From Solirubrobacterales bacterium (lineage in GTDB: Bacteria; Actinomycetota; Thermoleophilia; Solirubrobacterales; 70-9), in contig JAMLGI010000003.1 of the NCBI GenBank assembly GCA_023958085.1, forward strand, positions 62,001 to 126,000: a stretch of 64,000 nucleotides of DNA, given 5' to 3'. Made by a program: the position numbers and the translations under genes. The notes beneath the pieces were generated by a model that was not told the origin of the DNA, did not search any database, and saw only the letters and a program-made list of their open reading frames with translations. Below, in pieces: positions 33,345-39,900 of this stretch (position 1 is the stretch's first letter; every line of letters begins with the position of its first letter).

Positions 33345-33426
33345 GAAGGCATGGCCAGGACCTTGCCCCGGGGATCCCCCGGCGAATGAAGCCGGAAGGT
33401 TCCGGTCGGGCCAATACCCTGCGGTG

Positions 33427-35559
33427 ATGGACTCGGCCACGGAACCTCTTTTTTCAGACGAGACCGGTTTCTCCGGGCCGGTCACCGTGGTTCACGTGGT
33501 CTTCGCCTCGAACGACGGCGACTACGCCGTGGTCGAGGTCCGGGACGGTTCCGGTGAGGAGTTCATCGCGATCGGCTCCCTGACCCATCTCTCGCCGGGG
33601 GCACGGGCACGGATGACCGGTGAGTGGCAGGAACACACCCGCTACGGACGGCAACTGAGGGCCAACACCGCGATTCCGCTCGACCCGACCGACCGGGAGG
33701 GACAGGTCGCCTACCTGAGCTCCCTGCGGAACATCGGCGAGGTCCGGGCCGAAGCTCTCTGCGACCTGTTCGGGGAGGAGGTTCTCGACCGGATCGCCGC
33801 CGATCCGTCCGCCGCCTTCGGTTCGCTTCCGAAATTCGGGAAGAAACGGGTCGAGGCAGCGGTAGCGAGCTGGTACGAGACCCGGGCGGTGCGGGACCTC
33901 CACGTCGAGCTCGGGCCTCACGGCCTGGCCCACCTCGCCGGCCGGATCAATGCCCGTTTCGGCGATGAGGCCCTTCGGGTCCTGCGTGAAGATCCCTACC
34001 GGCTGACCGAGGTGGACGGGGTCGGGTTCCAGCGGGCCGATGTGATCGCCCAGGGGGCGGGGGTGCCACCCGAGTCCGACCGTCGTGCCCAGGCCGCGGC
34101 CTGGTACCTGCTGGGGGAGGCCGAGCGCCGTGGTCACACTCACTTGACCGCCGGGGACCTGGCGAAGAAGACCGGGGATCTGCTCGGGTTGAAACCCGAT
34201 CCGGAGGTGCTTCTCGCCGCACCGGGCTTGATCGTCGAGGGCGAGCGGGTCTATCGGGAACGGACCCTGAACCGTGAACAGTGGGTCGCGGCCGAGCTGC
34301 GGGACCGGGCCGAGGCCGAACCTCAACTGGAGGTGAACCCCAGGCCGTCCGTGGGAAGCGAACTCACCGGTGAACAGTGGCGGGCGGTCGAGGCGGCCTT
34401 CACCGCCCGGATCTCGGTGGTCACCGGAGGCCCCGGCGTCGGCAAGACCGTCTGCACCCGGGCGATCGTCGATTCCGCCCGCGAAGCCCGACTGCGGGTC
34501 GGCCTCTGTGCTCCCACCGGCCGGGCCGCCCGCCGGATGGCCGAGGCGACCGGAACCGAGGCGCACACCATCCACCGTCTGCTCGAGTGGCGACCCGGGT
34601 CGGAACCAACCTTCCGGCCGGGCCATCCGTTGCCGCTGGAACTGCTGATCGTCGATGAAGCCTCGATGATCAACCTGCACATGGCCGAGGTGCTGCTCGG
34701 CGGGGTCGGAATCGACACTCACATCGTTCTGGTCGGCGATGCCGACCAGCTGCCCCCGGTCGGGGCGGGCAAGCCGTTCTCGGATCTGCTCGAGTCCGGC
34801 CTGGTTCCGGCCACCCGGCTGACCCATGTGTTCCGGCAGGCAGCGCAATCGATGATCATCACTGCAGCCCACGAGGTGAACCAGGGCCGGGCCCCGCATC
34901 TGGAGCCAGGTCCGGACCAGCACCGGGACTTCCACCTGATGGAAAGGGTCGGTGGCTCAAAGGTGAAGCAGGCAGTGGTTCAGGTGATCAGCGAACGGGT
35001 CGCGGCGGGACTCGGACTCGACCCGATCCGGGATGCCCAGGTGCTGGCCCCGATCTACCGGGGTGATGCCGGAATCGATGTGCTCAACCGGGAGCTTCAG
35101 GCGAAGCTGAATCCGGACGGCCGGAAGGCGATCCGGGACCGTTTCCGGGTGGGCGACCGGGTGATCCAGACCCGGAACGCCTACGACCTCGGGCTGATGA
35201 ACGGCACGATCTGCTTCCTGATCGACGACGATCCGGACGAGGAGATGGCGGTACTCGAAACCGACGACGGGGAGCAGGTGATCCTGCCGTGGGATGACGC
35301 CGGTGACCTCAAGCTCGCCTACGCGATCTCGGTCCACAAGTCCCAGGGGTCGGAGATCCCGGTGGTCGTTTTCGTCTGCCACCGCTCTCATGCGGGAATG
35401 CTCACCCGGCCCCTGATCTACACCGCGATCACCAGGGCGAAGGAGATGTGCGTGCTGGTCGGTGACCGTCCCGCACTCGAGGCCGGGGTCCGCCGCGACG
35501 AGTCGGGCCGGCGAAACTCCTCCCTCGCCCGGCGGCTCGCCGGTGAACTCGACACCTGA
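33427..35559 (+). CDS. recD2: RecD2-type ATP-dependent 5'-3' DNA helicase
   Basis: 710 residues. The RecD2 N-terminal domain (OB-like, then LRNIGEVRAEALCDLFGEEVL helix-hairpin-helix) precedes SF1B helicase motifs: I GGPGVGKTVCTRA, Ia APTGRAARRM, II LIVDEASMI, III VGDADQLPPVGAG, IV-V and VI YAISVHKSQGSEIPVVV and YTAITRAKEM. Not associated with RecBC. Relatives give DNA-damage tolerance and unwind with 5'-3' polarity. The ATG at 33427 is preferred over the GTG three nt earlier because TACCCT lies exactly 6 nt before it (33415-33420). Confidence 0.94.
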   Translation: MDSATEPLFSDETGFSGPVTVVHVVFASNDGDYAVVEVRDGSGEEFIAIGSLTHLSPGARARMTGEWQEHTRYGRQLRANTAIPLDPTDREGQVAYLSSLRNIGEVRAEALCDLFGEEVLDRIAADPSAAFGSLPKFGKKRVEAAVASWYETRAVRDLHVELGPHGLAHLAGRINARFGDEALRVLREDPYRLTEVDGVGFQRADVIAQGAGVPPESDRRAQAAAWYLLGEAERRGHTHLTAGDLAKKTGDLLGLKPDPEVLLAAPGLIVEGERVYRERTLNREQWVAAELRDRAEAEPQLEVNPRPSVGSELTGEQWRAVEAAFTARISVVTGGPGVGKTVCTRAIVDSAREARLRVGLCAPTGRAARRMAEATGTEAHTIHRLLEWRPGSEPTFRPGHPLPLELLIVDEASMINLHMAEVLLGGVGIDTHIVLVGDADQLPPVGAGKPFSDLLESGLVPATRLTHVFRQAAQSMIITAAHEVNQGRAPHLEPGPDQHRDFHLMERVGGSKVKQAVVQVISERVAAGLGLDPIRDAQVLAPIYRGDAGIDVLNRELQAKLNPDGRKAIRDRFRVGDRVIQTRNAYDLGLMNGTICFLIDDDPDEEMAVLETDDGEQVILPWDDAGDLKLAYAISVHKSQGSEIPVVVFVCHRSHAGMLTRPLIYTAITRAKEMCVLVGDRPALEAGVRRDESGRRNSSLARRLAGELDT

Positions 35560-37963: not shown

Positions 37964-38563
37964 TCAGCCGAGCTGACGGAGAGCTTCGATCCGGCGGGCG
38001 CCGGCCTTGCCGGAGACCTCGAATTCGGCCTTGATCCGTTCGATGTCGATCTCGGGCTCCCCGTCCAGCAGGGGGCGTACCAGGCGGGCCGGCATCAGCA
38101 GGGAAGCCGAGAAGGTGTTGGCCTCCACCTCGGGAATCGGCCGCGGCACCGGTTCGAGCGGCGAACCGTCCTCCTCGGCGGTAGTCCGGCAGTAGATCCC
38201 GGGCCGGCCGGCCTGATGCATCACGTAGTGACCGAGCTCGTGGCCGACCGTGAACCGGGTCCGGGGCGTGCCCCAGGACGTCTGTTCGGCCTCCCATGAG
38301 TTGACCCAGATCTCGCCGATCCCGCAGAGCAAGAGGCCGGAGACGTCACCGGGCTCGTCGAGAGGTCCGTTTACCGCCTCCCTGATTTCCTCGCCGCTCT
38401 TCAGCAGCACCCGGAGCCCGTAGACCTCCCGGGCGATCTTCTCGACCGGCACCGGCAGGCTCCTGCCGTTCCACACCCGTGACGGAATCGCGGCGACGAT
38501 CTCCCCCACCTCGGACTCGATCCGGCCCGCCTCCTCCGGCTCCAGGCTGGTTGCCAGCGCCAC
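37964..38563 (-). CDS. ImmA/IrrE-family metallopeptidase
   Basis: 199 residues. The zinc motif HELGH (in RFTVGHELGHYVMHQAG) and downstream EVEANTFSASLLMPARLV are the ImmA/IrrE (M78) signatures. An N-terminal helical domain (residues 1-60) resembles those of ImmA-type proteins. Such enzymes cleave a cognate XRE-type repressor upon stress, phage induction or DNA damage. It follows the HTH gene with a 1-nt gap and shares its operon with an ECF-type sigma factor. Confidence 0.9.
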   Translation of the reverse strand: MALATSLEPEEAGRIESEVGEIVAAIPSRVWNGRSLPVPVEKIAREVYGLRVLLKSGEEIREAVNGPLDEPGDVSGLLLCGIGEIWVNSWEAEQTSWGTPRTRFTVGHELGHYVMHQAGRPGIYCRTTAEEDGSPLEPVPRPIPEVEANTFSASLLMPARLVRPLLDGEPEIDIERIKAEFEVSGKAGARRIEALRQLG

Positions 38564-38564
38564 C

Positions 38565-39227
38565 TCAGCCCCCGGTGAACAGCTCGTCTATGCGGTCGGG
38601 TGGTGTGGCCCGGCGCCCGGTTCCCGCGGATCGATCGGCCGGGAGTCCCGGTGACGCCATTCCCAGAACCGCGTCCCCCGGCTCGACCGAGCGGGCGTAC
38701 ACCGGCCCGGAGGAGGATGCACGGCCCGGACCGAGCACGCGTCCGGCCGCACGAAGCGACTCCCGGGTGCTCCGGAGAGCCCCAGCCAGCGAGTCGAGCA
38801 GCAGGTCGGACAACCCGCCTGCCGGGAGGGACCCCCACTCGAGATCGTGGTAGTAGGCGTCGATCTTCTCCCTCTCTTCGCCCGTGGCCTCGAGTTCGCC
38901 GGCGATCGCCCCGACCACATCCGACTGGCTGAGCTCAAGTTCGGATCGGCGTTCGACCAGCAACCGGGACAGCCCTCCCGCTCGGCCGTCCAGCCGCGGC
39001 AGGATCTGTCCGACGGCCGTCTCCACCTCGGGGTGGTCGGGACCGACGAGCTTCGGGTCCGGGCGCGGACCGGCTTCGAGGAACCGGTCGATCATCCGGC
39101 CGAGCTGCAGCGTCGACTCCTCGTCGAGTCCGGCCATGACCGGGTCGGGGTCCGCTTCGCCGCGGGCGAATCCGTCGACGTATCGACGGTACCGCTCCTG
39201 AATCACGGTTTCGCGGCTGTCAGCCAT
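38565..39227 (-). CDS. XRE-like helix-turn-helix protein, putative partner of the ImmA-type protease
   Basis: 220 residues. The N-terminal ~80 residues are acidic and helical. Around residues 85-150 a segment resembles the XRE HTH: LVERRSELELSQSDVVGAIA, then DAYYHDLEWGSLPAGGLSDL, like the recognition helix of SinR/ImmR-type repressors. The Pro/Gly-rich tail of ~50 residues could be a protease-sensitive linker. Similarity to XRE is by pattern only. It overlaps the sigma gene by 8 nt and nearly touches the protease gene, so it is a candidate repressor, anti-sigma or substrate. No other function can be assigned. Confidence 0.6.
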   Translation of the reverse strand: MADSRETVIQERYRRYVDGFARGEADPDPVMAGLDEESTLQLGRMIDRFLEAGPRPDPKLVGPDHPEVETAVGQILPRLDGRAGGLSRLLVERRSELELSQSDVVGAIAGELEATGEEREKIDAYYHDLEWGSLPAGGLSDLLLDSLAGALRSTRESLRAAGRVLGPGRASSSGPVYARSVEPGDAVLGMASPGLPADRSAGTGRRATPPDRIDELFTGG

Positions 39228-39858
39228 CGATCCCGTCCAGTCTGGTCTTCAAGCACTTGCGGAAGCGGGAGAACACCTGATCCACGTTGGCCGGGCTGAT
39301 CCCGCCCTGGTCGGCGAGCATCTCCGAGATTTCGGTGGAGGGGTAGCCGTCCATCTTCAACTCGATCGCCCTTCGGTGAACCGTGCTCCTCGACGCAAGC
39401 AGCTCGCCGACCAGCTCGATCGTGGCGACCGCGCCCTGCTCGTCACTGAGATCGGCGATCTCGAACACCCAGCCGTCGTCCTCCCCGTCCGGCCGGGCAT
39501 CCGCGGCAAACTCGTGCCGTTCCTTCCGCTTCTGCTTCTTGATGGCGTCCACGCATCGACAGTGGACGATCGTCTTGAGCCAGTTGACAAACTCGCCGGT
39601 GTGACTGGCCCGCAGCGAATGGGTCGACTCAAGGGCGCTGACGAGCACCTCGTTGACCACCTCTTCACGAAGCTGGCGGTCACTGATCTTGCGGGCGACA
39701 AGGCCCTTGACCATCGGCTGCCTGGCCCAGATGAAGGCCGCCGTTCCCGCCCTGAACTCCTCCATCTCCCCGGCATCCCGTGCGGCCACCGAGTACTCGA
39801 TGATTTTCTCGTCGGGGAGGTTGAGTAGTTCATCTCGATGCCTGGGTCTGAAGTTCAA
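39220..39858 (-). CDS. ECF-type RNA polymerase sigma factor
   Basis: 212 residues. Sigma region 2 is REEVVNEVLVSALES followed by FVNWLKTIVHCRCVDAIKKQKRKERHE (core binding and -10 recognition); region 4 is RAIELKMDGYPSTEISEML and SPANVDQVFSRFRKCLKTRL (-35 HTH). The linker is acidic (DARPDGEDDGW). TTG start with SD GGGGAAGGC. First gene of the sigma/HTH/protease operon. Two imperfect direct repeats (CACATCAGTCA and CACATCTGACA) lie in its leader region. Confidence 0.88.
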   Translation of the reverse strand: MNFRPRHRDELLNLPDEKIIEYSVAARDAGEMEEFRAGTAAFIWARQPMVKGLVARKISDRQLREEVVNEVLVSALESTHSLRASHTGEFVNWLKTIVHCRCVDAIKKQKRKERHEFAADARPDGEDDGWVFEIADLSDEQGAVATIELVGELLASRSTVHRRAIELKMDGYPSTEISEMLADQGGISPANVDQVFSRFRKCLKTRLDGIDG

Positions 39859-39866
39859 GCCTTCCC

Positions 39867-39900
39867 CACATCAGTCAAGCCGACAGGTACACATCTGACA
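39867..39900. promoter_or_regulatory. Paired repeats upstream of the sigma/HTH/protease operon
   Basis: CACATCAGTCA (39867-39877) and CACATCTGACA (39890-39900) match at 9 of 11 positions and start 23 bp apart, about two helical turns. A TATCTT -10-like sequence lies on the minus strand at 39906-39911, so they would sit just downstream of transcription start, where an HTH protein could block it. Confidence 0.45.

What the first reader, a model, noticed from the sequence alone, without database searches (positions are those of the whole stretch)
37964..39858. Sigma factor, XRE-like protein and ImmA/IrrE protease in one operon: candidate undescribed proteolytic switch
Seen directly: three overlapping or abutting genes encode an ECF-type sigma factor, a protein with an XRE-like HTH pattern and a Gly/Pro-rich tail, and an HELGH metalloprotease. 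Established: ImmA cleaves the ImmR repressor of ICEBs1, and IrrE cleaves DdrO in Deinococcus. Inference: here the protease may cleave the middle protein to release or derepress the sigma factor, so stress could be read through a sigma factor rather than a phage repressor. I know of no described system with this three-part layout.
Basis: partly seen in the sequence, partly recalled or inferred. Interest (0 to 1): 0.85.

Follow-up and report, generated by a model that had tools for sequence, protein, structure and literature searches.

The report
Sigma factor–protease DNA-damage switch
Three neighbouring genes kept together across a whole class of actinobacteria look like a switch in which a DNA-damage-type protease frees a gene-activating sigma factor from its partner protein so that it turns on DNA-repair genes; it appears not to have been described, and the protein chemistry is still untested.

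Summary
On the minus strand lie an ECF sigma gene, a 220-aa middle gene and an M78 (IrrE/CapP-type) metalloprotease gene (8 bp overlap, 1 bp gap). The trio is conserved across the class, probably Thermoleophilia: of 72 loci with a full-length middle protein, 70 have the sigma gene directly upstream. An M78 gene lies directly downstream in 64 of the 68 loci not cut by a contig end (50 same strand, 14 convergent), mostly in otherwise unrelated surroundings. The middle protein combines an N-terminal helical domain found almost only beside such sigma genes, an XRE-fold domain (near CapH, SinR, DdrO), a flexible linker and a near-invariant D-x-L-F tail. An ECF-type promoter, TGTCAGA-N16/17-GAC, precedes the sigma gene (24 of 68 perfect; 0.1 expected). 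It recurs 14-15 nt before addAB in all 14 assessable trio-bearing genomes of the genus, before sbcD, and in subsets before rmuC and ssb. Best reading: the middle protein is an XRE-containing anti-sigma factor; damage-activated cleavage frees the sigma factor to transcribe double-strand-break repair genes. Sigma binding, cleavage and damage induction are inferred. New variant of the IrrE–DdrO/CapP–CapH kind.

The parts
39874..39900 (-). Predicted ECF-type promoter of the operon, TGTCAGATGTGTACCTGTCGGCTTGAC (-35 TGTCAGA, 17-nt spacer, -10 GAC), ending 15 nt before the sigma start codon
   Evidence: Perfect match in window; perfect in 24 of 68 orthologous sigma upstream regions against 0.11 expected; layout like ECF41 TGTCACA-n16-CGTC
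39220..39858 (-). ECF-type sigma factor, 212 aa (regions 2 and 4 joined by a low-confidence linker; extra N-terminal helices)
   Evidence: Pfam Sigma70_r2 9.5e-9; NCBIfam SigK-like subfamily model 2.7e-13, far below its cut-off; AlphaFold model pLDDT 90, Foldseek hits a sigma-H model, sigma-E, SigW, SigK, SigL
38565..39227 (-). Middle protein, 220 aa: proposed XRE-containing anti-sigma factor
   Evidence: No Pfam/NCBIfam hit; profile finds it in 79 of 299 genomes of the class; sigma gene directly upstream in 70 of 72 loci
39072..39227 (-). N-terminal helical, acidic domain (residues 1-52), proposed sigma-binding module
   Evidence: pLDDT about 95; net charge about -7 on average for the part before the HTH; nearly all class-wide matches are the middle protein itself; one stand-alone copy sits beside a second sigma gene
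38739..38978 (-). XRE/lambda-repressor-fold domain (residues 84-163) with an acidic recognition segment in this member
   Evidence: VIA-align Z 9.1 to CapH and SinR, 8.3 to DdrO at 35% identity; 8 of 25 relatives match HTH_31, best 4e-4; recognition segment net charge -4
38568..38597 (-). Conserved C-terminal tail DRIDELFTGG (D-x-L-F near-invariant), after a flexible linker
   Evidence: D, L and F conserved in 93-97% of 73 relatives; predicted helix 212-218, pLDDT 93 in the last block
37964..38563 (-). M78 (IrrE/ImmA/CapP-type) metalloprotease, 199 aa
   Evidence: Peptidase_M78 2.1e-10; best defence-library match CapP 3e-22; profile matches CapP 7t5t 2.7e-13 and IrrE 3dte 4e-5; H108, E109, H112, C125, E145 invariant in 27 relatives
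38228..38242 (-). HELGH zinc-binding/catalytic motif of the protease
   Evidence: Read directly; invariant in 27 relatives

Best explanation
The three genes form an autoregulated DNA-damage switch. At rest the middle protein holds the ECF sigma factor inactive, probably through its N-terminal helical domain. Damage, most likely single-stranded DNA or a metal/redox change as for PprI/IrrE and CapP, activates the M78 protease, which cuts the middle protein in or near its XRE domain or linker. The freed sigma factor recognises TGTCAGA-N16/17-GAC promoters: its own operon, giving positive feedback and fresh inhibitor for reset, and repair genes, above all addAB and sbcD and in subsets of genomes rmuC and ssb. 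Shown here: conserved trio, domain make-up, intact protease active site, shared promoter motif and its positions. Inferred: sigma binding by the N-terminal domain, cleavage, the signal, and that this sigma reads this motif.
For: Synteny: sigma directly upstream in 70 of 72 loci, one exception being a contig edge; M78 adjacent in 64 of 68, 50 same strand and 14 convergent, so the link survives rearrangement; flanks largely unshared outside the genus. Usually the only M78 gene in the genome. The middle protein has an XRE fold near protease-cleaved repressors CapH and DdrO among others; the protease is nearest CapP and IrrE, active site invariant. The N-terminal domain is found nearly only in these proteins, and a stand-alone copy pairs with a second sigma gene in G081. 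Promoter: perfect upstream of 24 of 68 sigma genes versus 0.11 expected. Same motif, with up to two mismatches, ending 14-15 nt before addAB in all 14 trio-bearing genus genomes with an assessable start; G012, without a detected trio, lacks it. Across 42 genomes 21 of 26 with the trio versus 4 of 16 without (Fisher 0.0005, not corrected for kinship). Also sbcD, ssb, rmuC and DUF2130.
Against: No direct evidence that the middle protein binds the sigma factor or is cleaved. Its N-terminal domain has no recognised anti-sigma match. The motif is short: over whole genomes the spacer peak at 16-17 is modest, so single hits are often chance. The motif also precedes SAM riboswitch leaders, HtpX, a secreted trypsin-like protein and orphan genes, so the regulon is not purely repair. 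ssb carries it clearly in only four genomes. G014 and G016 have the addAB motif without a detected trio, though both are incomplete. Outside the order the sigma genes mostly lack this motif.
Confidence: 0.6

Rival explanations
1. DdrO-like repressor: the middle protein is a DNA-binding XRE repressor of the operon and regulon; M78 cleavage derepresses them, and the sigma factor is just one of the genes repressed.
For: XRE fold close to DdrO and CapH, both repressors cut by M78 proteases.
Against: The conserved element at the targets is a -35/-10-like pair with fixed spacing, not a palindromic operator. The recognition segment is acidic in this member. An N-terminal domain without HTH still pairs with a sigma gene in G081.
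Confidence: 0.17
2. The middle protein is a co-activator or RNA-polymerase adaptor for the sigma factor, and the protease ends the response by destroying it.
For: The XRE domain plus the conserved D-x-L-F tail could be docking elements; the tail is kept even where the protease has changed subfamily or orientation.
Against: IrrE and CapP are damage-activated and switch responses on; ECF sigma factors are typically held by a co-transcribed anti-sigma partner.
Confidence: 0.1
3. The TGTCAGA-N17-GAC motif belongs to another actinobacterial damage regulator such as PafBC acting with the housekeeping sigma, and the trio has some other regulon.
For: PafBC promoters share TGTCR (tTGTCRgtg-8nt-TannnT); addAB promoters also keep a TAnnnT box (16 of 16).
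Against: 0 of 31 motif instances fit the PafBC layout; the 13 sigma promoters and 2 sbcD promoters checked have no TAnnnT box; the addAB motif tracks trio presence; the layout matches ECF promoters.
Confidence: 0.1
4. A mobile or defence-type module (COG2856/Xre toxin-antitoxin, ImmA/ImmR element switch or CapH/CapP immune controller).
For: The protease's best hit in the defence library is CapP.
Against: No toxin or immune operon beside it in the window; fixed chromosomal site with shared flanks across the genus; none in plasmids or viral contigs.
Confidence: 0.03

Closest known systems
IrrE (PprI)-DdrO radiation/desiccation response of Deinococcus
   Same: M78 protease plus XRE protein; [quoted passage not shown] protease activated by ssDNA (PMC10904395) or zinc/redox signalling (PMC7907104, abstract)
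   Different: DdrO is a DNA-binding repressor; no sigma factor in the pathway; here the XRE protein carries an extra N-terminal domain and a D-x-L-F tail, and the shared element is an ECF-like promoter, not the RDRM operator
CapP-CapH controller of CBASS and other immune operons
   Same: Closest protease match; XRE fold at the top of the structural matches; ssDNA-activated protease cleaves the HTH protein
   Different: Controls an adjacent immune operon by derepression; no sigma factor, no anti-sigma-like domain
ImmA-ImmR of ICEBs1
   Different: Mobile-element repressor; here chromosomal, at a fixed site across the genus, with a sigma factor
[quoted passage not shown]
   Same: ECF sigma gene followed by a soluble partner gene, autoregulated -35/-10 promoter; promoter type like ECF41 TGTCACA-n16-CGTC (PMC3426412)
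   Different: XRE and HTH do not occur in that review's text and no M78 protease is named in the passages read; no recognised anti-sigma domain in the middle protein
PafBC-controlled mycobacterial DNA damage response
   Same: LexA-independent repair-gene induction in actinobacteria, ssDNA signal, TGTCR element
   Different: WYL-domain activator of the housekeeping sigma factor; promoter layout differs (0 of 31 instances fit)

Membership tests
M78 (IrrE/ImmA/CapP) metalloproteases | HExxH plus downstream glutamate and M78 profile match | tested here: met
   Pfam M78 2.1e-10; H108, E109, H112, E145 invariant in 27 relatives; matches CapP and IrrE structures by sequence profile
M78 (IrrE/ImmA/CapP) metalloproteases | Cleaves a partner XRE protein | not testable with these tools
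   Inference from 64 of 68 adjacency
XRE/lambda-repressor HTH proteins | Five-helix HTH fold | tested here: met
   Predicted fold of residues 82-167, Z 8-9 to CapH, SinR, DdrO; Foldseek E-values are above 0.1, so support rests on predicted structure
XRE/lambda-repressor HTH proteins | Sequence family match | tested here: inconclusive
   Window protein matches none; 8 of 25 relatives match HTH_31, best 4e-4
XRE/lambda-repressor HTH proteins | Specific DNA binding | not testable with these tools
   Recognition segment is acidic in this member; family HTH net charge ranges from -8 to 8
ECF sigma factors | Sigma region 2 and region 4, no region 3 | tested here: met
   Region 2 above cut-off, region 4 weak by sequence; sigma-factor fold by structure search
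ECF sigma factors | Autoregulated -35/-10 promoter upstream | tested here: met
   24 of 68 perfect, 0.11 expected; sequence evidence only
Anti-sigma factors | Co-transcribed with the sigma gene | tested here: met
   Gene overlap in the window; directly downstream of sigma in 70 of 72 loci; transcription itself not measured
Anti-sigma factors | Recognised anti-sigma domain | tested here: inconclusive
   No Pfam anti-sigma match; the N-terminal domain was not searched alone by structure
IrrE-DdrO system | DdrO-type repressor acting at RDRM operators | not tested
   RDRM not searched for; the element found is ECF-promoter-like
CapP-CapH immune controller | Adjacent immune (CBASS-type) operon | tested here: not met
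   Window neighbours are a RecD2 helicase, a beta-lactamase-like protein, a FAD oxidoreductase and ABC-transporter-like genes
PafBC promoters | tTGTCRgtg-N8-TannnT | tested here: not met
   0 of 31 instances

The most novel reading that the evidence does not exclude
A class-wide, sigma-factor-driven DNA-damage response in which an IrrE/CapP-type protease cuts an XRE-containing anti-sigma factor, so that damage switches on addAB, sbcD and other repair genes by sigma release instead of repressor loss. This would be a further architecture for bacterial damage signalling beside LexA/DdrO-type derepression and PafBC-type sigma adaptation.
Probability: 0.5. Interest if true: 0.88.

Novelty: new variant of a known kind. 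Interest (0 to 1): 0.75.

Why it matters
M78 proteases that sense DNA damage are known to cut DNA-binding repressors. If this reading is right, the same sensor has been rewired onto an ECF sigma factor, giving an autoregulated, LexA-independent repair response in a large, little-studied group of actinobacteria. It comes with a defined promoter and named target genes, so each step can be tested at once.

Tried and rejected
PafBC promoter reading: 0 of 31 motif instances fit. Mobile or phage origin: no hits in plasmids or viral contigs; an alignment-based viral search could not be run. Hits in G489 and G325 look like MmyB-type XRE proteins matching only the HTH, not the family. A profile search of solved structures with the middle protein gave only weak matches that look like chance. 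A whole-genome spacer histogram gave only a modest peak, so I rely on orthologous positions instead. Literature searches for an ECF-IrrE/M78 system found none (the search matched words beginning with 'irre'). The main ECF classification paper (Casas-Pastor 2021) and the CapP-CapH paper are not held, so a listing of this gene context there is not excluded.

Full report
WHAT IS THERE. Sigma region 2 is clear and region 4 weak by sequence; the predicted structure matches sigma factors including sigma-E, SigW, SigK and SigL. The protease matches Pfam M78, most closely CapP and then IrrE, and keeps its catalytic residues in 27 of 27 relatives. A cysteine (C125) is also invariant and aligns with a CapP cysteine; I recall a cysteine-switch proposal for CapP but could not check it.

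THE MIDDLE PROTEIN. It has no Pfam or NCBIfam family. AlphaFold with 25 relatives gives an N-terminal helical domain (residues 1-52, pLDDT about 95), a domain at 84-163 with the XRE/lambda-repressor fold, a low-confidence linker, and a short confident C-terminal helix. The XRE part aligns with CapH and SinR (Z 9.1) and DdrO (Z 8.3, 35% identity). Across 73 relatives the tail D-x-L-F is 93-97% conserved and the part before the HTH averages a net charge of -7. In this member the recognition segment is acidic, which argues mildly against a classical repressor.

SYNTENY. The middle protein occurs in 33 of 61 near relatives and 79 of 299 genomes of the class. The nearest named record is a Solirubrobacterales MAG, and Solirubrobacterales belongs to Thermoleophilia, so the class is inferred to be Thermoleophilia. 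Of 72 loci with a full-length middle protein, 70 have the sigma gene directly upstream; one of the two exceptions is at a contig edge. An M78 gene lies within about 1.1 kb downstream in 64 of 68 loci not cut by a contig end: 50 on the same strand, 14 convergent. In the remaining four an M78 gene still lies within a few kilobases. Outside the window's genus the loci share little beyond the trio, except between closest relatives, so the association is selected. In most of the ten genomes tested this is the only M78 gene. Plasmids and viral contigs gave no match.

NATURAL DISSECTION. In G081 a second sigma gene is followed by a short protein holding only the N-terminal domain, with no HTH and no tail, convergent with a complete trio. 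A class-wide search with the N-terminal domain alone finds almost only middle proteins. This points to the N-terminal domain as the sigma partner module; it is a single case. In one family (f2) the M78 gene is often convergent and only weakly related to the usual one (E about 1e-16 to 1e-24 against 1e-45 or better in most other loci), yet it usually stays next to the pair.

PROMOTER AND REGULON. Upstream of the sigma genes of the genus is TGTCAGA-N16/17-GAC; in the window it is at 39874-39900, perfect. Over 68 loci it is perfect in 24 against 0.11 expected from shuffles and within one mismatch in 31 against 2.3, in families f1, f2 and f3. It resembles the ECF41 promoter TGTCACA-n16-CGTC (PMC3426412). 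In 18 genomes of the genus the pattern occurs 92 times against 31 for the reversed control (my sums). A histogram of spacers in four genomes shows only a modest peak at 16-17, so single hits are weak evidence. Orthologous positions are stronger. In front of addB, the first gene of an addAB helicase-nuclease operon, the motif, with up to two mismatches, ends 14-15 nt before the start codon in all 14 trio-bearing genomes of the genus with an assessable start; G012, without a detected trio, lacks it while keeping a TAnnnT box. G014 and G016, incomplete genomes without a detected trio, have it. In other genera of f1 and in f3, 7 of 12 genomes with the trio and 2 of 13 without have it, there at more variable distances from the assumed start; together 21 of 26 versus 4 of 16 (Fisher 0.0005, kinship not corrected). 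sbcD has it in 6 of 6 usable cases with up to two mismatches, rmuC in four of six with up to one mismatch at variable distance, ssb perfectly in three genomes and with one mismatch in a fourth, and single genes for DUF2130, HtpX, Cas9, ARPP-1 and REase-ARP proteins. It also precedes SAM riboswitches in five genomes, so the regulon is not only repair.

MECHANISM. PprI/IrrE is activated by ssDNA and cuts DdrO, and CapP likewise cuts CapH (PMC10904395; PMC13373217); the DdrO regulon includes recA and ssb (PMC8533742). ECF sigma factors are usually held by a co-transcribed partner (PMC8999054). Putting these together, the best-supported model is a protease-released, autoregulated sigma factor for double-strand-break repair. 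Gene order, domains, active site and promoters are shown by sequence or structure prediction; sigma binding, cleavage, the signal and use of the motif by this sigma are inferred. A PafBC origin of the motif was tested and not met (0 of 31).

NOVELTY. I found no description of such a trio in the literature held, but the main ECF classification paper was not available. I rate it a new variant of the M78-XRE proteolytic switch, joined to an ECF sigma factor.

Noticed in passing
window 33424-35559 (+): RecD2 DNA helicase gene (TIGR01448, 2.7e-185), close to the trio; its gene cluster recurs beside the trio in 8 loci of the genus.
   Followed up: partly
L167 (G000 C1 about 440,700): A Cas9 gene of the window's own genome has the TGTCAGA-N17-GAC motif 10 nt before its GTG start; single case, so chance is possible.
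   Followed up: no
L173, L176, L212, L227, L230: The same motif lies just upstream of SAM riboswitches in five genomes of the genus, an unexpected target class for a repair regulon.
   Followed up: partly
L174, L215, L219: A family of about 110 aa (MWIVTDRGFxSxVDKG...) of unknown function has the motif upstream in three genomes; the members scanned in Pfam and NCBIfam matched nothing.
   Followed up: no
L259 / L120 (G081): Complete trio convergent with a second sigma gene that is followed by a protein holding only the N-terminal domain.
   Followed up: yes
L071, L087 (G068): Extra incomplete copies of middle protein and M78 genes, looking degenerate.
   Followed up: partly
L256 4516-5756 (G045): An M78 gene plus a 165-aa ORF without Pfam match lie upstream of the sigma-middle pair instead of downstream.
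   Followed up: partly
window upstream of 39858, and L003-L022: Genus-conserved GGTATCTTGG and GACTGTAGCCGAC blocks further upstream of the sigma gene, perhaps promoter parts of the divergent FAD oxidoreductase gene or an operator.
   Followed up: no
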